A stretch of 48,079 bases of DNA from an uncultured Lamprocystis sp. (lineage in GTDB: Bacteria; Pseudomonadota; Gammaproteobacteria; Chromatiales; Chromatiaceae), in NCBI RefSeq assembly GCF_903933125.1, contig NZ_CAIZIZ010000325.1, positions 1 through 48,079 on the forward strand. Direction: 5' to 3'. Below, one piece after another: positions 148 through 47,205 of the stretch. The translations under genes were made by a program, and so were the position numbers. A model generated the notes under the pieces. It searched no databases and was not told the DNA's origin. It saw only the letters and a list, made by a program, of their open reading frames with translations. Position 1 is the stretch's first letter. Each line of letters starts with the position of its first letter.

Positions 148-1107
<960 letters not shown>

Positions 1108-1189
1108 AATTCGGTGCCTATAAGATAAAAGATGATGACAGCATTGAAGACGGACAAAGGTTCAGAGGGCGCGGCACGGGTGCGCGGCC

Positions 1190-1939
1190 TCAGGGCGCGC
1201 CGGAACCGGCCGCAAGGGCCGCCAGGATCGGCCCCGACCGCTCGGCACAGAAGCCAAGATGCCCTTCGATCTCGGTCATGGTGATCGCTCCCTCCCCCTT
1301 GCCCGCGGCCCAGTTAACCACGAACGCGAGACTCGCGTAACACAGACCCAGCTCGCGGGCCAGAGCGGCTTCGGGCATCCCGGTCATACCCACCAGATCA
1401 CAGCCGTCACGCTCCATCCGCGTGATCTCAGCCGCCGTCTCCAGGCGCGGCCCCTGGGTCACACCGTAGGTCGCATCATCGATCGCGGCAACCCCGGCGA
1501 CCGCGCAAGCGTGCAACAGGTCCATGCGCAACTCCGGGCAATAGGGATCGGTGAAATCCACGTGAGTCACCGCGACCGCGTCGTCATCATGAAAACTCTG
1601 GTCGCGGCCATGGGTGTAATCGATCACTTGATCGGGGACCGCAAAGACCCGCGGACCGAAACGCGCGGTGATTCCGCCGACAGCCGCCAGACCGAGCACG
1701 CGCTGCGCACCGCCGACGTGTAGCGCCCACAGGTTGGCCCGATAGTTGATTCGATGCGGCGGCAACCGGTGACCCTCGCCGTGCCGGGGCAGGAACAAGA
1801 CCCAATGGCCAGCGAGGCGACCGTACACGAGAGGCACAGAGATGGCGCCGAAGGGGGTGTCGAGCGGTTTCACCTCGACAACCTGAAGGCCGGGCAGGCG
1901 CTGAAAACCCGAACCCCCAATGATCGCGAGCAGACCCAT
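1190..1939 (-). CDS. S-methyl-5'-thioinosine phosphorylase (MTAP/PNP family)
   Basis: A nucleoside phosphorylase of the PNP/MTAP superfamily, 249 residues, the usual length. Seen: N-terminal IIGGSGF, the phosphate-site PRHGEGH, HRINYRANLWAL, TYGVTQGPRLETAAEI and VGMTGMPEAALARELGLCYA. The tail VVNWAAG, instead of the TDYDCW-type stretch of methylthioadenosine phosphorylase, points to the methylthioinosine-specific subgroup known from Pseudomonas, which splits MTI after deamination of MTA from polyamine synthesis. I place the start at ATG 1939 because AGAGG lies 5 nt upstream; an in-frame TTG directly before it is less likely. In Pseudomonas the homologue sits beside nagZ; here hpt and a hemerythrin-like gene lie between, all on this strand, so a purine-salvage grouping is plausible. 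Confidence 0.88.
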   Translation of the reverse strand: MGLLAIIGGSGFQRLPGLQVVEVKPLDTPFGAISVPLVYGRLAGHWVLFLPRHGEGHRLPPHRINYRANLWALHVGGAQRVLGLAAVGGITARFGPRVFAVPDQVIDYTHGRDQSFHDDDAVAVTHVDFTDPYCPELRMDLLHACAVAGVAAIDDATYGVTQGPRLETAAEITRMERDGCDLVGMTGMPEAALARELGLCYASLAFVVNWAAGKGEGAITMTEIEGHLGFCAERSGPILAALAAGSGAP

Positions 1940-2061
1940 CAAAACCTCTGGAACGTCACCTGGACAGGAAGGCGAGAGTCTACCTCAGAGACCGCGGAAG
2001 CAAAAAAAACCGGCGCCGCCACGAGCATGGGGCGTCGGCACGGTTTATACCCGTCGTTGTT

Positions 2062-2111
2062 GGTTTCTCGTTTTTCGTAACCCGATGCGTGATGGACAGT
2101 AACGAGAAACC
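2062..2111. repeat. Inverted repeat with 11-bp perfect arms
   Basis: GGTTTCTCGTT at 2062-2072 pairs with AACGAGAAACC at 2101-2111, leaving a 28-nt loop. It lies between the hemerythrin-like gene and the methylthioinosine phosphorylase gene. It could be a weak structured element or a regulator site; there is no poly-T tail typical of a terminator. Confidence 0.6.
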
Positions 2112-2181
2112 GAAAACCCAAAACCGTTCCGTCTAACTGGCGCCGCCGTCGGTCGAACCGCGCGTCGGCAGTCCGAGCGGT

Positions 2182-2625
2182 CTAGATGCGCGTCTCCTGG
2201 AACATCCCGATCTCGACCAGCTTCGGAAAAAGCACCCGCTCCTCACGATCGAGACGCTGCCCGACCATGTCGAAAACCTCATGGGTCTCGGTCAGAAAGT
2301 CTTCGTTGAACGTGTAGTCGCAGTTCTTGAGCCAATGCTTGTGATAATCGTCGAAGGTTTTGCGCAACGGCCGCTCACCGCTGATGAACCCCCAAGCGAT
2401 CGACTTGACCTTGGGATCTTCATGGATCAGCAGGCTGGGGTAGAGTCCGCGATCCTCTTCGGCCAGGTGTCTACGCACTTTTTCGCCGAGATCACAGAGC
2501 AACTCAAACGCGGTCTTGGCATTCGGGCGGATGCGCAGTTGATCCTTGGTCAAGATCGAACGCAGATCATCAATCATCTGCCGGAGTTCCGCATGCGTGC
2601 TGCGATAACCGTCTAGTGTATACAT
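2182..2625 (-). CDS. Hemerythrin-like HHE cation-binding domain protein
   Basis: 147 residues of mainly helical sequence with spaced metal-ligand candidates: STHAEL near residue 11, RRHLAEEDRGLYPSLL near 52-67, YHKHW near 94-98 and a closing DREERVLFPKL. This is the pattern of the HHE/hemerythrin superfamily, which binds a di-iron centre and O2 or NO, or serves in oxidative or nitrosative protection. No extra domain is visible. The start ATG at 2625 has a strong GGAGG 8 nt upstream (complement at 2634-2638). It is flanked on the same strand by hpt (upstream) and the nucleoside phosphorylase (downstream) with gaps of about 200 nt, so it may be its own transcription unit. The ligand set is only inferred from spacing. 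Confidence 0.82.
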   Translation of the reverse strand: MYTLDGYRSTHAELRQMIDDLRSILTKDQLRIRPNAKTAFELLCDLGEKVRRHLAEEDRGLYPSLLIHEDPKVKSIAWGFISGERPLRKTFDDYHKHWLKNCDYTFNEDFLTETHEVFDMVGQRLDREERVLFPKLVEIGMFQETRI

Positions 2626-2822
2626 GAGCCATCCTCCTCGTTATTACTTCGCGAGCGTAAGGGGAAGACACTGCGCTTCCGCGACACCCACGACTCGGCA
2701 CGTTTTCGAAGCGGTGCCGAACAAAGGTCGGAGCACGCGCGAACGTGTTGGCTAAGAAATACCGCAAAATTGCCCTGGAGTCAAAAAGGCCCTATTTATA
2801 TCAGAGTTTTATCGAATACCAA

Positions 2823-3386
2823 TCAACAGTCCTCGACGGCCACGGCGAAGACGCCAGGGACGTTTCGAAAGTAGTTCTTGTAGTCCAAACCGTAGCCGAA
2901 GAGGTAGCGGTCGGGAACCTGGACACCCACGAAATCGGCTTCACAGACATGGGGCCGCCGCTTCTCCACCAGAACCGCGACGTGTATTCCAGCGGCTCCG
3001 TCGTCACGGCAGGCCCGCACGATCGCCTCTAGGGTAACGCCCTCGTCCAGGATATCGTCCACGATCAGCACCTGTTCCCCGCGGATGGCTTCCGTCGGGC
3101 GGTAGTGCCAGACCAACTCGCCGCCGCTGGTCGCTCCCCGGTAGCGGCCAACGTGGACGTGACCCAGCCGCAACTGGAAATTCAGCCGGGGCAGCAGCAG
3201 GCCGGTGGCGATGACGCCCCCGCTCATGACACAGAGCACCAGGGGGTCGGTCCCGGCCAAGCGCTCGCTGATGGCCTCGGCCATGCGGTCGATCGCCTGC
3301 TCCATGGCGTCCTGGGTGATCAGGCACTCGGCACGGTCGGCCACCGCCGTGTAAGTCTCAGGGGAAAGTTTCATAGGTCGATTCAC
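2823..3386 (-). CDS. hpt: Hypoxanthine-guanine phosphoribosyltransferase
   Basis: 187 residues. The PRPP-binding signature VLIVDDILDEGVTL is intact, and the N-terminal LCVMSGGVIATGLLLPRL and the C-terminal PDRYLFGYGLDYKNYFRN (purine-contact region) match the HGPRT family; the enzyme converts hypoxanthine or guanine plus PRPP to IMP or GMP in the cytosol. The GTG at 3386 forms a GTGA overlap with the nagZ stop, so translation is probably coupled; an internal ATG at 3374 (fourth codon further in) is an alternative start without a better ribosome site. Salvage of purines fits the nucleoside phosphorylase encoded downstream on the same strand. Confidence 0.93.
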   Translation of the reverse strand: MNRPMKLSPETYTAVADRAECLITQDAMEQAIDRMAEAISERLAGTDPLVLCVMSGGVIATGLLLPRLNFQLRLGHVHVGRYRGATSGGELVWHYRPTEAIRGEQVLIVDDILDEGVTLEAIVRACRDDGAAGIHVAVLVEKRRPHVCEADFVGVQVPDRYLFGYGLDYKNYFRNVPGVFAVAVEDC

Positions 3387-4459
3387 GTTGATGATGGTGG
3401 GCGGGTGGGGTCGTCGAGCGCCAGATCGAGGGTCGCCAGGTCCTCCAACAGGGCGACCTGACGCACACCCGCCTGCCAGCGCGGCGCTTCGTGCAATCGC
3501 GCGGGTTCGGGGTCACCGCGTCCGTGCATCCTCAACAGGCGTAACTGGCCGGCAGGATCGTGGTGTTCGCGAAACGCTTGGACGATCGCGAGCGCGGCCG
3601 GACGATTGTTGCAGATCAGCAGCATGTCACAGCCGGCGCGCGCGGCCGCCTGGGCGCGTTCCACATAGCCGCCGCCGACATCGGCCGCGGCCATATTGAG
3701 GTCATCGCTGAAGATGACGCCCGCAAAACCGAGACGTCCACGCAACAGGTCGCGCAACCAAACCGCGGAGAATCCGGCGGGCTCTGCCGCCACGCGGGGG
3801 TAAATGACGTGAGCCGGCATCACCGCCTCCAAGCCGTGCTCGATCAGTCGCGCAAAGGGGATAAGGTCATCGGCCAGGAGGTCAGCCAGATCGCGCTCGT
3901 CAAGCGGCAGCGCGGTGTGGGAGTCAGCCGCCACCCCGCCGTGCCCAGGAAAGTGCTTGCCCACCGCCGCCATCCCGGCCTGGCGGACCCCGGAGGTCCA
4001 GGCCGTGGCCAAGTCGACGACCTGGGTCACCCGCGCACCGAAGCCGCGGTCACCGATCACCTGACTGATCCCCCGATCCAGGTCCAAGACCGGGGCGAAG
4101 CTGAAGTCCACTCCCGCCGCCCGTAACTCGGCCGCCATCAACCAGGCCACGTCGGCGCAGGCCGCACAGGCACGCCGCGGGTCGGCGGCATAGAGTGCGC
4201 CAAAACGCCCCGCCGCCGGCAGCCGGGTGAAGCCGTCGCGAAAGCGCTGGACCCGCCCGCCCTCCTGATCCACGCCGACCAGCAGGCGCGGTTCCCGCAG
4301 GGCATGGATCGCCGCGGTCAAACGCCCCAACTGCTCAGGCGAGGCGTAGTTGCGGGAAAACAGGATGACACCGCCCACGGCCGGGTGACGCAGCAACTCG
4401 CGATCCTCGGCGGTCAACTCCGGACCGGCCAAATCCACCATGATCGGACCCAGTGACAT
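3383..4459 (-). CDS. nagZ: Beta-N-acetylhexosaminidase of peptidoglycan recycling
   Basis: A glycoside hydrolase family 3 enzyme that removes GlcNAc from anhydromuropeptides in the cytoplasm. Seen: GPIMVDLAG start, VGVDQEGGRVQRF, the catalytic-loop signature GKHFPGHGGVAADSH and the nucleophile motif FSDDLNMAA. The length of 358 residues is normal. I chose ATG 4459 because GGAGG lies 7 nt upstream (complement 4466-4470); a GTG at 4483 would add eight unconserved residues. The stop overlaps the hpt start by four bases. The C-terminal region after about residue 275 is somewhat divergent, but no key motif is missing. Confidence 0.95.
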   Translation of the reverse strand: MSLGPIMVDLAGPELTAEDRELLRHPAVGGVILFSRNYASPEQLGRLTAAIHALREPRLLVGVDQEGGRVQRFRDGFTRLPAAGRFGALYAADPRRACAACADVAWLMAAELRAAGVDFSFAPVLDLDRGISQVIGDRGFGARVTQVVDLATAWTSGVRQAGMAAVGKHFPGHGGVAADSHTALPLDERDLADLLADDLIPFARLIEHGLEAVMPAHVIYPRVAAEPAGFSAVWLRDLLRGRLGFAGVIFSDDLNMAAADVGGGYVERAQAAARAGCDMLLICNNRPAALAIVQAFREHHDPAGQLRLLRMHGRGDPEPARLHEAPRWQAGVRQVALLEDLATLDLALDDPTRPPSST

Positions 4460-4684
4460 CGCTATGCCTCCTGGGCGCAGCACGCGGCCCGACGCGAACC
4501 CATCGGGACGATGTCAATCGGGGTCTCGATCGGGGCGTAGACACTGGACTCTGGCATCGGTTGGCTCGCGGCGCGGGGCCGGGGACGATCGCCCGGCGCA
4601 AGATCACTTTTTTAACACAGGGCGCTGACCTGGGCCAGCACCCGCAAGTCTGAGCGCCGCATTGCGCCCCGGTTGACCGCCACG

Positions 4685-5590
4685 TCACGGCAACGGCTCG
4701 GCCCGCGTCATGTCGAGCCGGATACCCAGGGGTCCGCGCGGTACCCAGGCCTCGACGATCCCGCGGCCGCGCCGCACCCGCACCGGGACCAATTCTCCGG
4801 ATTCTCCCTGGGTGGTGCCATCGCGCAGTGCGTCGGCGGCGTACATCCGCTCGCCGGCATAGGATTCAATCAGATCTCCCGCCTGGAGTCCGGCCGCCTC
4901 GGCCGCCGAGCCCGGAATCACCGCGGCAACCGCGACCCGGTTGTCCTCACCCGTCAGATACAGATAACGGTCATAGGCAAGGTCGCCGATCTCCTCGCGC
5001 AACGGTCGCGGCTCCCCGCCGAGCTGACCCGACGCCTCGCGATAGCGGTCAGTGCCGATCCAGCCTTCGCGCACCGCCCGATCGCGCAGGGCCAGCCGCT
5101 CCAGCTCCAATCGCGCTTCCTGCCAGATGATGTCCTCCGCAAGCCCGGCGTCGACCCCGGCCGCAACCAGTGCGCTACGCCGCTCATCGGGGGTTCGCGG
5201 CGCGGTCGGGCGGTCCATGCCCGGGTCGCCCGCCGCGATCCGGCCTGCCAGCGTCTGCTCGACCTGGACCAACCGCGCCTGAAGGTCAGCCAGACGCGCC
5301 TCGGCGTCGCGCCAGGCGGCAAGCAAGGTCGCGACCCGCGGATCTGCCGTCGGCTCCGGCGCCGCGGCCACGACTGGAGCTGACGGCACGACCGGCGCAG
5401 ACACGGCCGTGACCTTCATCACCGGTACAGACGCGGGTAGTGCCGACACCGCGGGGGTGCTTTCGGCGGCGGTTGTGCCTGATCGCAAGGCAGGCACCTC
5501 GGCGGAGGCGAGTAATCGGCCGTAACCCAAGGCACCGATGAGGGTCCCAGCGACAAATCCCAGGGCAGTGAGAGTCCAAGTGGGTTTCAT
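4685..5590 (-). CDS. PDZ-domain protein with N-terminal membrane anchor
   Basis: 301 residues. An N-terminal hydrophobic segment (LTALGFVAGTLIGALGYGRLL, split here as TLTALGFVAG plus TLIGALGYG) is followed by an Ala/Pro/Val-rich linker, a predicted coiled coil at about residues 85-112 (ARLADLQARLVQVEQTL), a charged helical region, and a C-terminal PDZ-like module: VIPGSAAEAAGLQAGDLIESYAGERM, then VPVRVRRGRGIVEAWVPRGPLGI. No protease catalytic triad is present, so it is not a DegP-type peptidase; it may scaffold or sense C-termini in the periplasm. It is divergent from ftsH with about 260 nt between them. The specific role is not recognised. Confidence 0.75.
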   Translation of the reverse strand: MKPTWTLTALGFVAGTLIGALGYGRLLASAEVPALRSGTTAAESTPAVSALPASVPVMKVTAVSAPVVPSAPVVAAAPEPTADPRVATLLAAWRDAEARLADLQARLVQVEQTLAGRIAAGDPGMDRPTAPRTPDERRSALVAAGVDAGLAEDIIWQEARLELERLALRDRAVREGWIGTDRYREASGQLGGEPRPLREEIGDLAYDRYLYLTGEDNRVAVAAVIPGSAAEAAGLQAGDLIESYAGERMYAADALRDGTTQGESGELVPVRVRRGRGIVEAWVPRGPLGIRLDMTRAEPLP

Positions 5591-5849
5591 TAGCTTCTAC
5601 TTTAGGTCAGTATTGCGGTTCTGAGACGGTACTTCGATAGTCTGAGAGTGTGTCCGCGACCCTTCGGACAACAGGGTGCGGGCGGACGTTCCTTTCTGAT
5701 CTGTCGGGTCTTTGCGGGCATGACTGTCGCCTAGGCGATCGGTTGGGTTTTCGCCACGTTGCCCCGATGTAGATTGCAAGGCAACTTCACCACGCTTACA
5801 ACAAAACGGCGCGCCGATTCAGCGCACCGAGTGAGGATCGAGACAGGAC

Positions 5850-7772
5850 ATGAATGCGAAATACTTCAACATTTTGCTCTGGGTCGGTGTATCCCTGTGG
5901 TTAGTAATGATGTTCAACGGGATGAGCGCGCCCAGTCAGATCGAGGCACGGAACCTGAGCTACAGTCAGTTTCTGAGCGAGGTGTCCGATGGTGCGATCC
6001 AAGAAGTACGCATCCAGGATCAAACCATCAAGGGCACCCGCACCGATGGCTCGCGCTTCGAGACCTTCAACCCCGATGACCCCGGCCTGGTCGCCGATCT
6101 CCTGAAAAACGGCGTGGTGATTCATGCCGAACCCCCGGCGCAACCCAGTGTCATGGTCCAGATGCTGGTCGCCTGGCTGCCCTTCCTGCTGCTGGTCGGC
6201 GTCTGGATTTGGTTCATGCGCCGCAACTCCGGCGGCGGCGGCCCCGGCGGGATCTTCAGCTTCGGCAAGAGTCGCGCCCGTCAGCACGCGGAAGGCGACG
6301 TCAAGGTGACCCTGCGCGATGTCGCCGGGGTCGAGGAGGCCAAGGAAGAGGTCGGCGAACTGGTCGACTTCCTGCGGAACCCGCAGAAGTTCTCGAGCCT
6401 TGGCGGGCACATCCCGCGCGGCGTGCTGATGGTCGGCCCCCCCGGTACCGGTAAGACCCTGCTGGCGCGCGCGATTGCCGGCGAAGCCAAGGTGCCGTTT
6501 TTCAGCATTTCCGGCTCCGACTTCGTTGAAATGTTCGTCGGCGTCGGCGCCTCGCGCGTCCGCGACCTGTTCGAGCAGGCCAAGAAAAGCGCGCCCTGCA
6601 TCATTTTCATTGATGAAATCGACGCGGTCGGCCGCCGCCGCGGCGCCGGCCTGGGCGGTGGGCACGACGAGCGCGAGCAGACCCTTAACCAACTGCTGGT
6701 GGAAATGGACGGTTTCGCTGGCAATGAGGGCATCATCGTCATCGCCGCCACCAACCGGGCGGACGTGCTCGATCCGGCGCTGCTGCGGCCCGGTCGTTTC
6801 GACCGCCAGGTGGTCGTCGGTCTGCCGGATCTGGCCGGACGCACCGCGATCCTGGAGGTGCACATGCGCAAGGTACCCCTGGCCGAGGACGTGGTCGCCC
6901 GCACCATCGCCCGCGGCACGCCCGGCTTCTCCGGCGCCGACCTGGCCAATCTGGTCAACGAGGCCGCCCTGTTCGCCGCGCGCGCCGGGCTCACCGCCGT
7001 GAACATGCAGATGTTCGAGAAGGCCAAGGACAAAATCATGATGGGCGCGGAACGGCGCAGCATGGTGATGTCCGAGACCGAGAAGAAGCTGACCGCCTAT
7101 CACGAGGCCGGTCATGCCATCGTCGGCCGGCTGGTGCCCGAACATGACCCGGTGCATAAGGTCAGCATCATCCCGCGCGGCCGGGCGCTCGGTGTCACCC
7201 TCTTCCTGCCGGAGCGCGATCGCTACAGCATGAGCAAGCGCCAACTGGAGAGCCAGATCTCCAGCCTGTTCGGCGGGCGCCTGGCGGAGGAGCTGATCTT
7301 TGGGCCCGAGCATGTCACCACCGGGGCGTCCAACGACATCGAACGCGCCACCGCGATTGCCCGCAAGATGGTGACCCGCTTCGGGCTCTCCGACAACCTG
7401 GGGCCGCTGGCCTATGCGGACGAGGAGGGCGAGGTGTTCCTCGGCCATTCGGTGACGCAGCAGCGTCAGATTTCCGCGGATACAGCCCAGTCCATCGACC
7501 AGGAGGTGCGGATCATCATCGACCGCAACTACCGGCGTGCGCAGGACCTGCTCAACGCGAACATGGACAAACTCCACGCCATGGCCGACGCCCTGCTGCG
7601 TTTCGAGACCATCGACCGGGATCAGATCGACGACATCATGTCCGGCCGGCCGGCCCGCGAACCGGTCGAGGACACCGGACCCACACCCCCGCCCCGCGGC
7701 AGCAACCCGGCCACCGGCGGCAAGCCGCTGCCGGAGCCGCCGATCGCCGGACCCAGCGTGCGGGGGATTTAA
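5850..7772 (+). CDS. ftsH: ATP-dependent zinc metalloprotease FtsH
   Basis: 640 residues, full length. Two TM segments (about 5-23 and 104-122) bracket a periplasmic domain; the AAA module has Walker A GPPGTGKT at 196-203, Walker B IIFIDEID at about 251-258, and the second region of homology [20 protein letters not shown]; the peptidase zinc site is HEAGH at 418-422. FtsH degrades short-lived and misassembled membrane proteins. The C-terminus ends in a Pro/Gly-rich tail. Unlike enterobacteria there is no rlmE directly upstream here; the gene is followed by its own strong terminator, so it is probably a single-gene unit. Confidence 0.98.
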
Positions 7773-8089: not shown

Positions 8090-10507
8090 ATGACCGCAGT
8101 CCGTACGCGTCGATCCTGGTCCGCGCCCACCCTGGTCCACGCGGTCCTCGTCCTCGCCTGTGCCTGGTGGGTCTGGCTACCCGGGCCGGTGCGCGGGGAG
8201 ACCGCGACAGCCGCCGACCGCGCCACCGCCGCTGAGACACCCGCGCCGCGCACGGCCGGCGGACCCATCGCCATCCATGGACGCTCGGACGACCCGCGAC
8301 CACGATCAATGTTCGCGGCCGCGCTCGCGGCCAACCTGATCCTGACGGCCATCGTCCTGGCCGGATATCAGCGGCACCTGCGTCACACCCGCGCCAACCT
8401 GCGGACCGCCACAGCCAGCGCCGAGGCGTTGGAACAGCAACTACGGCAAGGACTCGAATCGCTGGGCGAGGCCCAAGAGACCTTTTGGCGTCTGACCGAT
8501 GCGACCCAGGGCGCGATCATCGTCACCGACGGCGAGGGGCGCGTCACCTACTGGAATACGACGGCCGAGCGGCTGTTCGGCTACAGCGCCACCGAGGCCT
8601 TGGGCAGCGTGATCCACGACCGGCTCGCCCCCCCGGAAAACCCGCACCGACGCGCTAACCGACGGCACCCACTTTTTCTCCAACGAAGAAGGTCCGAGCG
8701 GCGACCGCTCCCATGAGATCGAGGCCCTGCACCGGGACGGCCGACACATTCCGGTCGAGATTTCCGTTGCGTCCATCGCGCACGACGGCCGCTGGGGGCC
8801 ATCAGCATCCTGCGTGACTGCTCCGCGCGACGCCTGGCACAGAACCAGATGCAGCGCATGCAGTCGAGCTTCAGCAACGTGGTGCTCAAGAATCATAGCG
8901 GCATCCTGGTGGTCGACCGCCAGGGACTGATCCGCTTCGCCAACCCGGCGGCCCAGAAATCGCTGGGGCGCAACGCTGCGCAACTGGACGGACTGCCTTT
9001 CGGTCTGCCCAGCATCGGCAGTCAAACGGAACTCGACATCCTGCGTCCGGACGGCAGCTACGGGATCGCGGAGGTCACCGCGACCGAGACCGAATGGGAA
9101 GGCCTCCCGGCTTCCCTGATCATGCTGCACGACATCACGGACCGCAAGCGGGCCGAGGACCAGGTCCAGCACCAGGCCACCCACGACACTCTCACCGGTC
9201 TACCCAACCGGAGTATGTTCCTGAATTGTCTAGAGCAGGCACTGCTGGACGGGCGCCGCCACCGCGAACCGCTGGCGGTTCTCTTCCTCGACCTCGACCG
9301 TTTCAAAGAGGTCAACGACACCCTGGGTCACCGGGTCGGCGACGCCCTGCTCGAGGCGGTCGCCCTGCGGCTCAAGCGCATCCTGGGCAACCAAGACCTG
9401 GTCGCACGCCTGGGCGGTGACGAGTTCACGGTGCTCGCACGACGCGTCGGCTCGGCCAACGGTGCCGGGGAACTGGCGGCGCGGATCAGCACCGCCTTCA
9501 GCACCCCCCTGGACGCGGCCGGTCATCGGCTCTACTCCCGTCCCAGCATCGGCATCGCCCTGTTCCCGGAGCATGGGAACACGGGGGAGACCCTGATGCG
9601 CAATGCCGATACCGCCATGTATGAGGCCAAACGGCGTCCCGGCATCGAAGGCTTCGCCTTCTATCAGCCCGAACAGACGCAGCGCTCCCGCGAGCGCCTG
9701 GATCTGGAAACACGCTTGCGCACCATCTTGGCCGCCGGCGGCCTGCGGCTGCGCTACCAGGCGCAGGCCGATCTGCGCACCGGCCGACTGTGCGCTGCCG
9801 AAACCCTGATGCGCTGTGTCGATGCACAGGGACGGATCCTCCTGCCCGGGCAGTTCATTCCGGTGATGGAGCAGACCGGCTTGATCCGCGAAGCCGGTGA
9901 TTGGGCGCTCGGCGCCGCCTGCATGCAAATTCGCGCCTGGCTGGACCAGCAGTCGACCCACGCGGACAGGCCCGCCTGCACCCCGCCGCCGCTGGCCATC
10001 AATCTATCCGCCGTCCAGCTCGACGACGCGAACCTCCCCGACCGGATCGCGGAGCTCCTCGACCGCTACCGGCTGGCACCCGATCGGCTCGCGCTCGAGG
10101 TCACCGAGAGCGCCCTGATGGACAAGGCCGATCGGGCCCGCACCATCCTCGAACGCCTGACGACACTGGGCGTCAGCTTGCACCTGGACGACTTCGGCAC
10201 CGGTTACTCCTCACTGGCCCTGCTCGGCGAACTGCCGTTCAGCGTGATCAAAATCGACCGCGGCTTCGTCAGCCAGGTACCCGGGTCCGAAAAGCACATC
10301 GGGCTGATCGCGGCCATGATCGCCATGGCCCACCGCCTGCACCTGCGGGTGGTCGCCGAAGGCGTGGAGACCCCGGATCAGTGGGCGCTGCTGCGTCAAT
10401 TAGGGTGCGACATGGCCCAAGGCTACCTGATCAGCCGGCCGCTGCCGCCAGCGGCGTTCGCGCGGCTCTGCATGGGGCATCGCGACCGCCCGGTGAAGCA
10501 CGGCTAG
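8090..10507 (+). pseudogene. PAS-PAS-GGDEF-EAL cyclic-di-GMP protein with two compensating frameshifts
   Basis: Three pieces in two frames make one protein. 8090-~8640 encodes a TM segment, an export-like N-terminus, a second TM and the first half of a PAS domain (TDATQGAIIVTDGEGRVTYWN). About 8641-8795 continues that PAS in another frame (HFFSNEEGP...[19 protein letters not shown]). From ~8796 the first frame resumes: second PAS, GGDEF ([10 protein letters not shown] intact, inhibitory-site Arg absent: GNQD) and EAL. The EAL signature reads AAETLMR, keeping ExLx[31 protein letters not shown] and [11 protein letters not shown] are all present. An extra C near 8628-8643 and a missing G near 8791-8795 explain it. 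Either these are homopolymer sequencing errors and the gene is intact, or it is a recent pseudogene. An internal start at 8849 would still give a PAS-GGDEF-EAL protein. Confidence 0.85.
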
Positions 10508-41834: not shown

Positions 41835-42515
41835 GTGAGACTACCCGCGCCATTCGTGCTGTGCCTTTACGCAGCACTCTTGACCCCGCTCCCGGCCCAG
41901 GCGGAGACCCGTTATGTCACGGACCAAATTGAAAGCACGCTACGCACCGGCGAGAGCACCCGCTTCAAAATCCTGAAGATGCTGCCGAGCGGCACGCGCG
42001 TCGAGGTACTGGACGTCAACCAAACCACCAAATACGCACGGGTCCGCACCGCGGACGGCGCCGTGGGTTTCGTGCCGGAAGCGCAACTCCAGAGCGAACC
42101 CGCCGCGCGCAGCCGCCTCGCCGAACTGGAGACACGCCTGGCCGAACTGCAGCAGGAGCCGGACGCACTCGCCGCCCGGCTCACCAAGGTCCAGAACGAA
42201 CACGGCGCTCTGCAATCCGGCTATCAGACGCTGGAGCGGGAAAAGCAGTTACTGGAACAGCAATTGGCGACCATCCGCCACGCCTCCGCCAACGTCATGG
42301 ACATCACCACCGATCGGGAGCGCCTGCGCCTCCAGGTTGCCAACCTCACCCGCGCCCGTGCCGACCTGGAACAAGAGAACCGCGATCTCAAGAACCAGAC
42401 CAACCTGCGCTGGTTCCTGATCGGCGCCGGGGTCCTGATCGGCGGCATCCTGCTTGGGCTGCTGCTGCCGCATCTGCGGCTGGGGCGGCGGAAGAGTAGC
42501 TGGGGATCGTTGTGA
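41835..42515 (+). CDS. ygiM: SH3b/coiled-coil membrane protein of the TIGR04211/YgiM type
   Basis: 226 residues. Signal peptide (LCLYAALLTPLPAQAE), bacterial SH3 region (YVTDQIESTLRTGESTRFKI, LPSGTRVEVLDVN, YARVRTADGAVGFVPEAQL), a coiled coil about 93-190 (RLAELETRLAELQQEPDALA, LEREKQLLEQQLATIR), and one C-terminal TM (WFLIGAGVLIGGILLGLLLP) with a basic cytosolic end. The layout is that of YgiM. Initiates at GTG 41835 with a weak ribosome site; the 75-nt gap after argF holds three AACCGGATCG-type decamers. Confidence 0.9.
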   Translation: MRLPAPFVLCLYAALLTPLPAQAETRYVTDQIESTLRTGESTRFKILKMLPSGTRVEVLDVNQTTKYARVRTADGAVGFVPEAQLQSEPAARSRLAELETRLAELQQEPDALAARLTKVQNEHGALQSGYQTLEREKQLLEQQLATIRHASANVMDITTDRERLRLQVANLTRARADLEQENRDLKNQTNLRWFLIGAGVLIGGILLGLLLPHLRLGRRKSSWGSL

Positions 42516-42597: not shown

Positions 42598-42623
42598 AAA
42601 AACATGAGGCGAAATCGCCTCAT
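42598..42623 (-). terminator. Hairpin with T tract in minus orientation
   Basis: ATGAGGCGA (42604-42612), 2-nt loop, TCGCCTCAT (42615-42623); read on the minus strand it is followed by G then five T. No minus-strand gene runs into it, so it may serve as a bidirectional end for ygiM. Just before it three ~10-bp CACAGATGT units lie at about 42568-42595. Confidence 0.5.
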
Positions 42624-42910
42624 AACACACGAACGGTGCAACGAGGAACGGCGCGCAAGAGCTTGACAATCCGGCAAAGCCTTGATCCAATTCAGGAAAG
42701 GTGACGAGTTATGGTGGTTCGTCCGCCTAAATGCAGTCTTAGGCGCCACGTCTTCATAGCTAACTTGCGAAACAATCGGTTGTTTGATGCGAATATATTT
42801 GGACGTATGCGCGTTTAATCGGCCGTTCGATGATCAGAAACACATCCGCGTACGCCTCGAGTTACTCAAGAAAACGGCGACCGAATCGCAAATTGTAGCA
42901 ATCTCGCAGT

Positions 42911-42976
42911 TCCGGCGACAGTTTACTTAATTCCCGCTGGTTACAGATACCAAATTGAGTAAGCTGCCCCCGAAAC
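42911..42976 (+). repeat. Left direct repeat flanking the restriction-modification island
   Basis: About 66 bp (TCCGGCGACAGTTTACTT ... TTGAGTAAGCTGCCCC) matching 45958-46024 in the same orientation at close to 88% by eye. The two bracket about 3.0 kb of A+T-richer DNA holding the methyltransferase and endonuclease. Confidence 0.85.
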
Positions 42977-43017
42977 TGGAAACCCTTACCCGACGCGGAC
43001 TTACACCCAGCAAGAGA

Positions 43018-43111
43018 CGCCGAGCTTTGCTCGGCGCTATAACTTTCGCTTCAAAAGCGAGCGCGCGCCACGGGCGTTGTGCTAACTTGTCATCTGGGGC
43101 GCGCGCCGCTT
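43018..43111 (+). other. Structured DNA/RNA upstream of the methyltransferase gene
   Basis: Three inverted repeats: 43018-43025 with 43029-43036 (8-bp stem, TTT loop); 43046-43051 with 43055-43060; and 43055-43069 with 43098-43111 (14 pairs, bulges). The second and third share 43055-43060 and exclude each other. Could be a transposon or recombination end, or a leader RNA of the methyltransferase gene. Confidence 0.6.
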
Positions 43112-43294
43112 GGCCTTGATCGTAAATCCACTGAGACCTACTGATTCATGTGGGCGAGGGCTCGCAAGGCCATGTTCTGCAATGGGTAGGCGACCCTAGG
43201 GCCGAACGATGTGGGCGGAATTATGATCAAGGCCCGCCGCTTTAAGCTGAACGTTGGGCACCATATCTCGCTAGTCCGGAGTACACTCTGTTCC

Positions 43295-44647
43295 ATGTCT
43301 AACCATGCCCCAGAAAAATATCGTGTGCTTTCCCTTTTCTCCGGAGGAATGGGGCTAGACCTTGGGCTTGAAAGTACTGGTCGCTTCAGAACAGTTGCTT
43401 GCATTGAAAAGGAGTCAGCTTTTTGCGAAACCATCCGGCGAAACAGAGATACAGGCAGACTCCCGAGAGACTTACAGGTTATCGAAGCGGACTTATCAAG
43501 GTTGGATCCAGCGTCAACGCTTGAAGAGCTTGGACTCGAAAAAACTGCGATAGATGTTGTCGTCGGCGGCCCACCATGCCAATCGTTCAGTACCGCTGGA
43601 AGGCGCGGAACAACGCAAGATCCTAGGGGAACTTTACTATGGGACTTCCTGCGATTTGTGTCTTATATAGAGCCAAAGTTTTTCCTTATGGAAAACGTCC
43701 GTGGCCTTCTTTCAGCCGCATTAAAGCATCGCCCGATTGCCGAGCGTCCCGAGAAAGGCGGTTTGCCACTTGCTGAAGAAGAAGAGCCGGGCTCAGTTGT
43801 TCGTTTATTCGCTAAAGACTTGTCTGCGGTAAATGGCGGTTATCATTTGGATATATTTGAGGTGAATGCCGTCAACTACGGTGCACCACAGCTTAGAGAA
43901 CGGGCACTTTTTATTGGTAGCAAATTTGGAGAGCAAGTTGAGTTTCCGGCACCTACACATGGTCCCATCGAAAAGGATGAGATTCAAGGAGATCTGTTTG
44001 AGACTCCGCGTCTTATGCCGTGGCGGACTTTAGGCGATGCTTTGAATGGTTTAGAAGATCCAGATCCGAAAATTATGGACTTTAGTCCCCGTAAGAAGAG
44101 TTTTCTCGCAATGGTTCCAGAGGGTTCAAATTGGCGTAGCCTGCCTGAAGATGTTCAGAAGGAATCAATGGGACGCGCATGGCATGCTAAGGGAGGCCGG
44201 TCTGGTTGGTGGCGAAGATTGACTTTTGATCTTCCTTGTCCAACGTTAGTCACGATGCCTAACCATGCAAGTACATCGCTCTGCCATCCCAAAGAAACAC
44301 GAGCTTTGTCGATTCGGGAATACGCCCGTATCCAAGAGTTTCCGGATGACTGGTTATTTAGTGGCACGTTATCTCAGCAATATGCTCAGGTCGGAAATGC
44401 CGTACCGACTCGCTTAGGGCGAGTCGCAGGTCAGGTAATTGCGGAGGCCCTTGATAGAGTACTAATAGAAGGCACCCCGGCTAACATGATGAACTGCTTT
44501 GAGCCACGCATCGTTTATTTACAGTCGCACATACGTACCCGCCAGTGGTTTAAAGCGGGAGAGACTTTAATCTGGGAAAAAGGCGATGGGAACGAGAGAA
44601 TACGATACTCTAAGCCGAAAACCGTCCGAAAGCTTAGATGTGTGTAG
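43295..44647 (+). CDS. C5-cytosine DNA methyltransferase (type II R-M)
   Basis: 450 residues from ATG 43295; earlier in-frame ATGs add a leader without similarity. Motif I VLSLFSGGMGLDLG, motif IV GGPPCQSFS with nucleophile Cys95, motif VI MENV at 132-135, motif VIII QLRERALFIG, motif IX-X TRALSIREYARIQEFPDDW and VGNAVPTRLG. The variable target-recognition region lies between VIII and IX (about 215-350). It protects host DNA at the site cut by the endonuclease encoded 3 nt downstream. Codon use is A+T-rich against neighbours, a sign of transfer. Confidence 0.95.
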   Translation: MSNHAPEKYRVLSLFSGGMGLDLGLESTGRFRTVACIEKESAFCETIRRNRDTGRLPRDLQVIEADLSRLDPASTLEELGLEKTAIDVVVGGPPCQSFSTAGRRGTTQDPRGTLLWDFLRFVSYIEPKFFLMENVRGLLSAALKHRPIAERPEKGGLPLAEEEEPGSVVRLFAKDLSAVNGGYHLDIFEVNAVNYGAPQLRERALFIGSKFGEQVEFPAPTHGPIEKDEIQGDLFETPRLMPWRTLGDALNGLEDPDPKIMDFSPRKKSFLAMVPEGSNWRSLPEDVQKESMGRAWHAKGGRSGWWRRLTFDLPCPTLVTMPNHASTSLCHPKETRALSIREYARIQEFPDDWLFSGTLSQQYAQVGNAVPTRLGRVAGQVIAEALDRVLIEGTPANMMNCFEPRIVYLQSHIRTRQWFKAGETLIWEKGDGNERIRYSKPKTVRKLRCV

Positions 44648-44650
44648 AAC

Positions 44651-45622
44651 ATGGCACGAGGTCATCCCGGTCTACCACGCGCTCAGAATCGAACACTGTC
44701 TCGGCAACGCTTGCTCGGACAGCTACAGCAGATTGACAACGATCATGAGCATCGAGCAAGAGTGTTGCGCCTTGAGAATTCGTTTCGGAACAAGATTGAA
44801 ACACATATATCCTCACTTCCGGCTCAAGATGCAATTTTCCAGAAATTTAACACTAGCCCTTACGTACTACTGATACACGCGCGTCAACGAGGCTATTCCA
44901 AAGTCAGCGAACTTGAGGGCGACATTCTTCCGGCAAAGCAGTTCTCGTCCATGGAAACGTCTGCCGGCCGGATGGTTGAAGAAGTAGTTCTTCCAGAATA
45001 CGGCTGGGAATGCGTTGCTAGCGAAATGCACACATCAAATTCGGCTTTGGACGGTAAGCGTTTGGAAACAAGCGTTTACCACCTTGCCACGTTAAAGAGC
45101 GGACCTCGATGCCTGAATGACGAAATGAGCGAGAATTTTGCCGATGCAGTCCTTGCCAACTATGCATCTTGGTCTAATGAATCAGGCCGAACTAGAATTG
45201 ATTTTACATATGGGGTGCTGTACGGAACAGAGAAACTCTCCAACAAGAAAGACTGGCACATACTGAGGAATATTGATCAGAAATTCGGCGCTGATCTGAC
45301 AGTTTCTCCAGATAGCCAATGGACCTGCCAATTTGTCAAAAATGGTGTAACAGTTGATGTGACTATACGAATTGGCCTCGATTGGTGGCATCATTTGGGA
45401 GGTGAGTTTTGCTTCATCGAAGTATTCACGGCGCTAATTCGAGCCTGCGTAAACGTCGGAATTTCCGATTCAAACAGTTATGTATACACGATTAGCGATT
45501 TGAACGATATCGTTTCGACGTACTGCATTCGTGAGGACTACAACGTCTCGTTGCTACAGCGAAGTCAGCTTCCGTGGCTTTTCTTAATGGCCAGACATTT
45601 CTGCGATGAACTCACTGATTGA
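44651..45622 (+). CDS. Type II restriction endonuclease, PD-(D/E)xK-like
   Basis: 323 residues, starting 3 nt after the methyltransferase stop. A core FSSMETSAGRMVEEVVLPEY, SALDGKRLETSVYHLATLKS and GPRCLNDEMSENFADAVLAN carries D134, E139 and K149 in the pattern of the KSGP-type PD-(D/E)xK enzymes (EcoO109I/PmeII-like), though the residue before the lysine is Leu/Thr rather than Glu. The specific recognition site cannot be read from sequence. The C-terminal ~120 residues are unrecognised. The PmeII-like assignment is tentative; pairing with the methyltransferase makes restriction function likely. Confidence 0.78.
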   Translation: MARGHPGLPRAQNRTLSRQRLLGQLQQIDNDHEHRARVLRLENSFRNKIETHISSLPAQDAIFQKFNTSPYVLLIHARQRGYSKVSELEGDILPAKQFSSMETSAGRMVEEVVLPEYGWECVASEMHTSNSALDGKRLETSVYHLATLKSGPRCLNDEMSENFADAVLANYASWSNESGRTRIDFTYGVLYGTEKLSNKKDWHILRNIDQKFGADLTVSPDSQWTCQFVKNGVTVDVTIRIGLDWWHHLGGEFCFIEVFTALIRACVNVGISDSNSYVYTISDLNDIVSTYCIREDYNVSLLQRSQLPWLFLMARHFCDELTD

Positions 45623-45687
45623 AAATCGAGCCCAACACGCCCTTCAAGCCGGGACTAATAGGGGACAGACCAGAATGGCGTTAAGTT

Positions 45688-45731
45688 ACGATTACGGTGA
45701 CAGTTTACTACGATTACGGTGACAGTTTACT
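45688..45731. repeat. Two tandem 22-bp repeats
   Basis: ACGATTACGGTGACAGTTTA with CT, twice in a row (45688-45709, 45710-45731). The GACAGTTTACT part also opens the flanking direct repeats at 42911 and 45958. Confidence 0.9.
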
Positions 45732-45785
45732 AAATGCATTCTTTACTTGATTCCAGAACCGAGAAAAGCATAAAGAATGCCTCCG

Positions 45786-45890
45786 GCGTAGGGACTTCGG
45801 TAGCCCGACGCCCCCGCCACAGACCCGGACGTGCAGTTTTCCCGCATCCGGTTCCTCGGTCGTACTCGCTTTCGCGCGAGTGCGAGGTTT
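45786..45890 (-). ncRNA. Fragment resembling a group II intron RNA
   Basis: Read on the minus strand, GGAACCGGATGCGGGAAAAC then CTGCACGTCCGGGTCTGTGG and GGGGGCGTCGGGCTACCGAA is very like the conserved CCGGATGCGGGAAA..CACGTCCGG RNA segment of bacterial group II introns. No reverse transcriptase gene or complete ends are seen, so it is a remnant. Confidence 0.45.
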
Positions 45891-45957
45891 CATGCGAGTT
45901 CCGGGGACAGTTCATGAGTTCCGAGTTCCGAGTTCCAGTTCCGCCAGTTCCGCCAGT

Positions 45958-46024
45958 TCCGGGGACAGTTTACTTATCTCCCCGCTGGTTACAAATACCG
46001 AATTGAGTAAGCTGCCCCAGAAAT
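45958..46024 (+). repeat. Right direct repeat flanking the restriction-modification island
   Basis: About 67 bp (TCCGGGGACAGTTTACTT ... TTGAGTAAGCTGCCCC), partner of 42911-42976, same orientation. Preceded by short TTCCGAG/TTCCGCCAG tandem units. Confidence 0.85.
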
Positions 46025-46033
46025 CGTAACAAA

Positions 46034-46345
46034 ATGATTGACCTACCGTACTCACTCATTATTGAAACGACTGATGAGCCGGATTTCTTCAGCTATTTTT
46101 CGCCAGATCTTCCGGGTTTCTCCGGCGTAGCTCACTCAGTCGAAGGCTGCATCTACCAGGCAAGGCTCGGGATGCTGGAACATATTGATCTCTTGCGGGG
46201 GGTAAATGGGCCAAGCTCAATTGAAGTTTCCTCTGCGTGCCGGGTTTTATTGAGCCTGCCCCTTATCCTCGCTGAACCCGGCAATGACTCGCACAAAGAC
46301 ACGAAGCACACCCAGAAAAACGGATCATCGAAAGCGTCGGGCTGA
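46034..46345 (+). CDS. HicB-like antitoxin-family protein, degenerate C-terminus
   Basis: 103 residues. The first ~60 (MIDLPYSLIIETTDEPDFFS, YFSPDLPGFSGVAHSVEGC, IYQARLGMLEHIDLL) match the partial-RNase-H-like HicB fold. The tail SLPLILAEPGNDSHKDTKHT does not look like the usual DNA-binding end, suggesting a 3' frameshift or replacement. No HicA toxin gene is adjacent, so it is orphaned. Confidence 0.65.
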   Translation: MIDLPYSLIIETTDEPDFFSYFSPDLPGFSGVAHSVEGCIYQARLGMLEHIDLLRGVNGPSSIEVSSACRVLLSLPLILAEPGNDSHKDTKHTQKNGSSKASG

Positions 46346-46977: not shown

Positions 46978-47205
46978 TTCGGCGTACCCGGCCCCGCATC
47001 GTTGACGAAGGATGGGGCCGTCGGCGGGGCTGATGGTCGATGCGCTACGCTTATCCACCACAAAACCGGCGCCGCTGTAGGGTGAATAAGGCGCGCCGCA
47101 CGGTGTTTGGGAGCCGGCACATCGGTCGTGCGCGCCACATCCACCAAGGATCGCCCCAGAAGACCGTGGTGGAAATGGGCTGGTGTCGCGTACGACGGCC
47201 TCGCG

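What the first reader, a model, noticed from the sequence alone, without database searches (positions are those of the whole stretch)
42911..46024. Restriction-modification island between direct repeats
Two ~66-bp direct repeats bracket an A+T-richer methyltransferase-endonuclease pair, with hairpin-rich DNA at the left and 22-bp tandem repeats and a group II intron-like remnant at the right. This looks like a portable unit that could excise by recombination between the repeats.
Basis: partly seen in the sequence, partly recalled or inferred. Interest (0 to 1): 0.6.

Follow-up and report, generated by a model that had tools for sequence, protein, structure and literature searches.

The report
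Restriction-modification gene cassette in broken integron
A pair of DNA-defence genes in a purple sulfur bacterium sits in the wreck of an integron, a gene-collecting platform, and not between recombining repeats; such defence cassettes are a known kind of thing.

Summary
The flanking repeats are a dispersed family (17 matches on 12 contigs of this genome). The methyltransferase-endonuclease pair is an integron gene cassette. Left to right: SH3 gene; attI/leader (42604-~42737); REP-like repeat; reversed group IIC-attC intron remnant; attC1 (43037-43259, split by a 123-bp inverted-repeat element with an 8-bp target duplication); cassette (GTTGGGC, C5 methyltransferase, EcoO109I-family endonuclease, GCCCAAC); truncated attC2; second intron remnant; repeat. 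An attC covariance model built without the window finds attC1 (63 bits) and arrays beside integron integrases in two sister species, one of them Candidatus Thiodictyon syntrophicum. Eight of 53 endonuclease relatives tested also have an attC start just after the stop codon. Two sister species share the SH3-attI junction, lack the endonuclease, and carry other sequence after attI. No integron integrase lies on this contig, and no match in this genome passes the family cut-off. Type: new member of a known kind. The boldest open reading: integrase-less attI platforms are filled in trans.

The parts
41835..42515 (+). SH3-domain protein gene, left chromosomal flank; same neighbour of the leader in sister genomes G002 and G005
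42604..42737 (+). attI/leader of the genus's integron; conserved TTGACA at 42663 facing the cassettes; in about half of the copies a G|TTRRRY-like crossover follows the conserved block
42738..42744 (+). CTTAGGC, crossover-like start of a lost first cassette (consensus GTTRRRY, first base changed)
42909..42976 (+). dispersed REP-like repeat, copy 1
42981..43040 (-). 5' end remnant of a group IIC-attC type intron, inserted inside R'' of attC1, opposite to the genes
   Evidence: insertion rule from PMC7923331 passages
43037..43259 (+). attC1 of the native family; interrupted by the element 43112-43234
43112..43234 (.). 123-bp inverted-repeat (MITE-like) element with 8-bp target duplication CGCCGCTT (43104-43111, 43235-43242)
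43253..43259 (+). R' box GTTGGGC; the R-M cassette begins at 43254
43295..44647 (+). C5-cytosine DNA methyltransferase, 450 aa, motifs present
44651..45622 (+). Type II restriction endonuclease, EcoO109I family, 323 aa
45630..45651 (+). attC2, left half only (R'' GCCCAAC and L''-like), then cut off by repeat sequence
45689..45732 (+). two 22-bp tandem copies of a GACAGTTTACT repeat-type unit
45783..45890 (-). 3' end remnant (domains V/VI) of a second group IIC-attC type intron, preceded by GCCT (45779-45782), the probable start of a third attC (inference)
45956..46023 (+). dispersed REP-like repeat, copy 2

Best explanation
The R-M pair is an integron gene cassette stranded in the decayed remains of a chromosomal integron array of a Thiodictyon-group purple sulfur bacterium. 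Inferred history: an attI/leader lacking an adjacent integrase lies behind the SH3 gene; IntI recombination put cassettes beside it, including this one of about 2.4 kb (TTGGGC-MTase-REase-GCCCAAC...attC2). Two group IIC-attC introns entered neighbouring attC sites, a MITE-like element split attC1, and repeat sequence replaced the rest of attC2 and most of the introns. The pair presumably still methylates and restricts DNA as an ordinary Type II system, but the cassette can probably no longer be cut out. Shown here: attC identity, left cassette boundary, enzyme families, cassette state in some relatives, different sequence after attI in sister species. Well supported but partly inferred: attI. 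Inferred: right boundary in the window, order of events, loss of excision, enzyme activity.
For: attC model R1 (9 seeds, window not among them) scores window 43037-43128 at 63.2 bits, E 3.8e-17. The same model finds eight sites beside a full-length intI in G004:C79 and nine listed sites beside the 'integron integrase' of plasmid pTs485 of Ca. Thiodictyon syntrophicum; 7 of 8 genus genomes match, the own one in 23 places (the tool scored 150 of 1673 candidates there). With the element and one TSD copy left out, attC1 matches the native consensus at 79 of 85 aligned positions. 8 of 53 REase relatives have RYYYAAC within 30 nt of the stop, about 1.2 expected (my estimate); L090 and L130 carry full attC hairpins there. 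The cassette label is clustered on the REase tree: 2 changes, shuffled mean 8.5, 0 of 500 shuffles as low. The leader shares a contig with intI pieces or attC sites, in the expected orientation, on 11 of 22 contigs, the window's included (hand tally). 10 of 19 distinct leader sequences are followed within 14 nt by GTTRRRY with at most one mismatch, against 368 of 5000 random 14-mers. The REase is in 1 of 210 genomes of the order, the own one.
Against: attC2 is only a half site, so the right boundary rests on R'' plus the relatives. The window's attI crossover has C for G, and 9 of 19 leader sequences lack a crossover within one mismatch; five of these share one other continuation, GCTAGGA. Of six loci with an intI over the cut-off that I fetched, only two showed attC sites of this model; three of the other four have under 600 bases of contig on the 5' side of intI, but G006:C691 has 1.4 kb and none. 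attC seeds were found with a window stretch as bait, though the matching bait covered the left half only. In four of the eight relatives (L085, L086, L103, L120) only R'' after the stop is clear. The model does not find the attC sites of the relatives tested (L085, L086, L089, L090, L103, L130), so the cassette's own attC is of another type. The window is from a 589-contig draft. The right flank is not the neighbour of the left one in G002 or G005, so that side is also rearranged.
Confidence: 0.93

Rival explanations
1. One reading: an island that excises by homologous recombination between the two 66-bp direct repeats.
For: The repeats are real, in direct orientation, about 3 kb apart.
Against: 17 matches on 12 contigs (two on C170 overlap, the arms of one palindrome); same-strand pairs also on C499 and, as partial matches, on C225; the flanking copies are hardly closer to each other than to others; repeat units sit at both sides of a Y1 transposase on C225 and next to one on C588; the cassette boundaries lie inside the repeats and match attC boundaries in distant relatives.
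Confidence: 0.03
2. A REP/RAYT or composite transposon moved the R-M pair; attC resemblance is incidental.
For: Repeat-type sequence directly abuts attC2 and the intron remnants; two Y1_Tnp matches in this genome carry the same repeat close by.
Against: Only MTase and REase were identified between the repeats; attC1 at 63 bits, the leader, and cassette borders in 8 of 53 relatives are not explained.
Confidence: 0.02
3. The pair came by ordinary horizontal transfer and only later landed by chance beside an integron remnant.
For: Most relatives (45 of 53) have no R'' within 30 nt of the stop; attC2 is incomplete.
Against: Both borders (GTTGGGC before the MTase, GCCCAAC seven bases after the stop) fit, and the nearest kin on the tree carry the same R''.
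Confidence: 0.04

Closest known systems
R-M systems as integron gene cassettes
   Same: A paper on phage integrons states that some bacterial R-M systems lie in integron gene cassettes (PMC9892861, passages); type II restriction genes are reported to be smaller in integrons (PMC12409362, passages). Here the pair is compact, with 3 bases between the genes and no vsr match in the window.
   Different: Here the array is decayed, with no integrase in cis, and the family is EcoO109I-like.
CALIN (cluster of attC sites lacking an integrase)
   Same: attC without integrase; CALINs are proposed to be degraded integrons (PMC9024848, passages).
   Different: Only one attC by model plus one or two half sites, below the two-site threshold given there; an attI is kept.
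Group IIC-attC introns in cassette arrays, e.g. truncated copies in hypersaline arrays
   Same: Inserted in R'' on the bottom strand, opposite to the genes; a truncated copy is described in an array with toxin-antitoxin genes (PMC7923331, passages).
   Different: Only two end fragments survive, one on each side of the cassette.
EcoO109I restriction endonuclease (1wtd, 1wte)
   Same: All 44 aligned REases match Pfam RE_EcoO109I at E up to 0.01 (best 3e-9); the structure model aligns to 1wte at Z 12.3 over 189 residues, 4.2 A.
   Different: The window protein itself scores 20.9 bits, just under the 22.5 cut-off; 17% identity; the residue two before the invariant K149 is T or A in the 48 of 49 rows with a letter there, not D or E.

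Membership tests
Integron gene cassette | Preceded by G|TTRRRY of an attI/attC | tested here: met
   GTTGGGC 43253-43259 at the end of attC1
Integron gene cassette | Own attC after the last gene (R'' RYYYAAC ... R' GTTRRRY, hairpin) | tested here: inconclusive
   R'' GCCCAAC and an L''-like stretch are there; the other half is missing. Relatives L090 and L130 have the whole site
Integron gene cassette | Excised and integrated by IntI | not testable with these tools
   needs a recombination assay
Complete integron | intI beside attI | tested here: not met
   no intI match on contig C325 among the 18 of the own genome; none over the family cut-off, and one piece is cut by a contig end
Complete integron | attI with cassette crossover and outward promoter | tested here: inconclusive
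   leader is conserved, lies between intI pieces and attC arrays elsewhere, has a conserved TTGACA; crossover within one mismatch in 10 of 19 leader sequences, one base changed in the window. Promoter activity not tested
CALIN | at least two attC, no integrase | tested here: inconclusive
   one attC by model, one half site, one inferred from GCCT before an intron end
Type II R-M, EcoO109I family | MTase with C5 motifs next to REase | tested here: met
Type II R-M, EcoO109I family | REase in family PF14511 / EcoO109I fold | tested here: met
   44 of 44 members match at E up to 0.01; the window protein alone is under the curated cut-off; the three Foldseek hits at E up to 0.001 and the top two VIA rows are EcoO109I
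Type II R-M, EcoO109I family | RG^GNCCY recognition | not testable with these tools
   methylome or digestion needed; site of EcoO109I from PMC7337904 passages
Group IIC-attC intron | inserted in R'' of attC bottom strand, opposite to cassettes | tested here: met
   left remnant abuts AAC of attC1 R''; same junction in G007
Group IIC-attC intron | complete ribozyme with reverse transcriptase | tested here: not met
   only end pieces match in the window
REP/RAYT repeat | short palindromic dispersed repeat linked to a Y1 transposase | tested here: inconclusive
   17 dispersed matches; 2 of 16 Y1_Tnp matches have the repeat close by, the 12 Y1 loci fetched by the tool have none within their flanks, 2 were not looked at

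The most novel reading that the evidence does not exclude
attI platforms without their own integrase are scattered through these genomes and are loaded in trans by an IntI encoded elsewhere (another integron or a plasmid such as pTs485). At the SH3 locus the integrase-less junction is the same in the window, G002 and G005, yet the sequence that starts at the attI crossover differs in each: a lost cassette then the R-M pair, a PIN-like gene fragment, and a 337-aa gene with a truncated native attC. If the junction is older than the split of the three, genes were exchanged after the integrase was gone in cis.
Probability: 0.35. Interest if true: 0.65.

Novelty: new member of a known kind. Interest (0 to 1): 0.42.

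Why it matters
It replaces a plausible but wrong mobility model (repeat-mediated excision) with one that can be tested. One R-M family appears with cassette borders in contigs assigned to Pseudomonadota, Acidobacteriota and Cyanobacteriota (mostly metagenome bins, so the assignments need care; a full attC after the pair was seen only in the first two). It also describes integrons with their own attI and attC types in the Thiodictyon group; a search for papers holding both 'Thiodictyon' and 'integron' in the held library gave none. The shared integrase-less attI with different content in three sister species offers a natural test of loading in trans.

Tried and rejected
Repeat-mediated excision: rejected, see rivals. 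A single group II intron split by the cassette: rejected, because both remnants are reversed and the 5' end lies left while the 3' end lies right, so they belong to two introns. attC arrays beside four own-genome intI pieces by a bare RYYYAAC...GTTRRRY pattern: a few hits in two of the four contigs that I took for chance, none in the other two; the model later found no site in those four contigs either. A loose core pattern was useless. Reading 43112-43234 as the attC stem itself (my first idea, note): rejected, it is a separate dispersed element. Other members of that element showed no clear 8-bp target duplication. Integrase-like genes near the 54 relatives: two weak hits, L087 and L113, not followed. 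Promoter and terminator scan of 42900-43320: none found (attI itself was outside that stretch). HicB-like ORF at 46034: Pfam E 0.1, under the cut-off. Viral contigs: three relatives, none with R'' in the 30 nt after the stop. Plasmid records: one with a weak REase relative. Sequence search of the REase against solved structures: nothing for the single protein, one irrelevant weak hit for the profile. The excised or empty form could not be looked for: no reads.

Rows dropped before counts: one search tested 53 of the 54 relatives (L128 ends inside the gene and was not entered). The tree has 49 rows, the window and 48 of 54 relatives; left out were L124, L126, L127, L128, L131 and L135. One search aligned the window and 43 of the 54. 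One search counts each distinct leader sequence once (19), so copies with the same leader but other continuations, such as L238 (GTTGGAC), are not counted apart. The lists were cut by the tool, so the tally of leader contigs with intI or attC (11 of 22, made by hand; only prints it) is a lower bound. Five of the 28 leader matches cover 36 bases or fewer.
Full report
OBSERVATION. The window lies on contig C325 of a 7.1-Mb, 589-contig genome. The sister genome G007, same genus in the tool's grouping, holds plasmid NZ_CP020372.1, pTs485 of Candidatus Thiodictyon syntrophicum, Chromatiaceae. The two repeats (42909-42976, 45956-46023) are real and 90% alike. The C5 methyltransferase (43295-44647) and endonuclease (44651-45622) are open frames. 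G+C is 49-51% there and 56-71% in the other 1-kb steps.

THE REPEATS. A search of the own genome with the left repeat gives 17 matches on 12 contigs, 8 of them over nearly the whole repeat. Two on C170 overlap and are the arms of one palindrome; same-strand pairs occur on C499 and, as short matches, on C225. The best full copies elsewhere are 88% and 87% identical, close to the 90% between the two flanking copies. A Y1-type transposase on C225 has repeat units on both sides, and one on C588 has one next to it; the 12 Y1 loci fetched by the tool had none. I read them as REP-type repeats (inference). They do not define the island.

ATTC1. Own-genome hits to window 43060-43111 look like integron attC sites: RYYYAAC, a GC-rich hairpin, GTTRRRY in several, three of them 1-2 kb apart on C123. 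Nine were aligned and made into a covariance model without the window. It finds window 43037-43128 with 63.2 bits, E 3.8e-17. The control is external: the model finds 8 sites at 891-6686 of G004:C79, where a full-length intI lies at 8406-9350, and nine listed sites on pTs485 beside its annotated integron integrase. Against this, four other fetched loci with an intI over the cut-off (G006:C329, G001:C31, G006:C691, G005:C315) gave no site; three of them have under 600 bases of contig on the side where an array would lie, G006:C691 has 1.4 kb. 7 of 8 genus genomes match, 23 places in the own genome. The window site is cut by a 123-bp element, 43112-43234, with inverted ends and an 8-bp duplication CGCCGCTT; related elements are dispersed. 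Without it the site matches the native consensus at 79 of 85 aligned positions; the best of 1000 random window stretches scored 14.0 against 61.5.

THE CASSETTE. GTTGGGC (43253-43259) closes attC1, 35 bases before the MTase ATG; GCCCAAC (45630-45636) follows the REase stop by seven bases. Of 53 REase relatives tested, 8 have RYYYAAC within 30 nt after the stop, seven of them GCCCAAC; I estimate 1.2 by chance. L090 and L130 have whole attC hairpins there, L089 one with a single R' mismatch and L092 a truncated one, by eye. In the other four only R'' after the stop is clear, though L103 also has an attC-like hairpin ending in GTTGGGC just before its MTase. They are on contigs assigned to Pseudomonadota, Acidobacteriota and Cyanobacteriota. 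On the REase tree the label needs 2 changes, against a shuffled mean of 8.5; nearest to the window are L085 and L103, both with R''. The other 45 relatives tested are not cassettes by this test, so only part of the family travels this way. A vsr gene lies close after the REase in 5 non-cassette relatives (L094, L097, L106, L117, L138; L106 on the other strand) and in none of the eight with R'', in line with the report that integron-borne systems are trimmed (PMC12409362, passages).

THE ENZYMES. The MTase matches PF00145 and TIGR00675 well over cut-off. The REase scores 20.9 bits against RE_EcoO109I, just below its cut-off, but 44 of 44 family members match that model at E up to 0.01. Its structure model (mean pLDDT 88) has EcoO109I as the only strong solved neighbour: Z 12.3, 189 residues, 4.2 A, next unrelated row 5.9. 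D134 and K149 are invariant, while the residue two before K149 is T or A, so the usual acidic partner must come from elsewhere, perhaps E102 or E110 (inference). EcoO109I cuts RG/GNCCY (PMC7337904, passages); a related site is a guess for this enzyme.

THE INTRONS. Left of attC1, 42981-43040 is, reversed, the 5' end of an intron that in G007 sits in an attC in the same way; that intron matches Rfam group-II-D1D4-6 with 114 bits. At the right, 45783-45890 is, reversed, the 3' end (domains V and VI) of such an intron, Rfam 34 bits, below gathering; 45742-45890 is 89% identical to the G007 copy and its edge. Their order shows two introns. Published group IIC-attC introns enter R'' on the bottom strand, against the genes, and a truncated copy is described (PMC7923331, passages).

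ATTI AND THE SISTER SPECIES. Conservation with G002 runs from 40001 through the SH3 gene to 42732; with G005 to 42639 and then, after extra sequence, over 42604-42732; in the five other genus genomes it stops at 42505-42513. The last 130 bases are a leader with 28 matches in 4 of 8 genus genomes, 23 of them over 86 bases or more. It shares a contig, in the expected orientation, with intI pieces and/or attC sites on 11 of 22 contigs, the window's included (hand tally). After the conserved block, 10 of 19 distinct leader sequences continue with GTTRRRY at no more than one mismatch (3 exact), against 368 of 5000 random 14-mers; six have two mismatches, five of these the same GCTAGGA, and three have three. 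From position and crossover I take it as attI; the 9 without a good crossover are unexplained. In the window the crossover reads CTTAGGC. The SH3-to-leader junction is the same in the window, G002 and G005, with no integrase between. After attI, G002 has a broken PIN-like reading frame (by eye; no Pfam match) and G005 a 337-aa gene (weak nucleoside deoxyribosyltransferase match, under cut-off) followed by the left half of a native attC, cut off by another repeat (by eye). Neither genome has the REase; it is in 1 of 210 genomes of the order. So the platform is shared and the cargo differs. The right flank (Uma2, U32 peptidase) lies 112 kb away in G002 and on another contig in G005, so that side was rearranged.

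MECHANISM. Most likely: IntI-made insertion of the cassette, decay by introns, MITE-like and repeat sequence, and survival of the two genes. Excision now is unlikely, as attC2 lacks its right half and attC1 is split (inference). No intI match in this assembly passes the cut-off; one piece runs into a contig end.

NOVELTY. R-M cassettes, CALINs, IIC-attC introns and EcoO109I-like enzymes are all known. Paper searches for integron with restriction-modification, with anti-phage defence, with restriction endonuclease and methyltransferase, and with Thiodictyon gave general statements in the passages I read and no title on this locus (listings, most papers not opened). The open point is the shared attI without integrase but with different cargo.

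Noticed in passing
L141 (G005:C151) 2475-3488: First gene after attI at the orthologous locus is a 337-aa protein with a weak nucleoside 2-deoxyribosyltransferase match, followed by a native attC half cut off by a GGGGTCAGG repeat; possibly another defence cassette.
   Followed up: partly
G000 contigs C234, C509, C378, C13: intI remnants with internal parts missing (C234, C509, C378); G000:C13 and G002:C100 intI pieces stop at a contig end at the same profile position (186), as if a repeat interrupts both.
   Followed up: partly
leader copies in L173, L234, L239, L241, L245: Five distinct integron leaders continue with the same GCTAGGATTCACCC sequence instead of a GTTRRRY crossover; perhaps a fixed first gene or a changed attI.
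   Followed up: no
L103 6657-9600 (Leptolyngbya sp. PCC 6406): A close kin REase is interrupted after residue 219 by two transposase genes (DDE_Tnp_1 and IS66).
   Followed up: partly
window 47017-47154: A sequence of about 140 bp repeated many times in sister genome G002 (over 30 listed matches) and found in other sister genomes.
   Followed up: no
window 46034-46345: HicB-like antitoxin fragment by eye, Pfam E 0.1, below cut-off.
   Followed up: partly
REase residues 134-149: Invariant D134 and K149 but T/A instead of an acidic residue two before the lysine across the family.
   Followed up: partly
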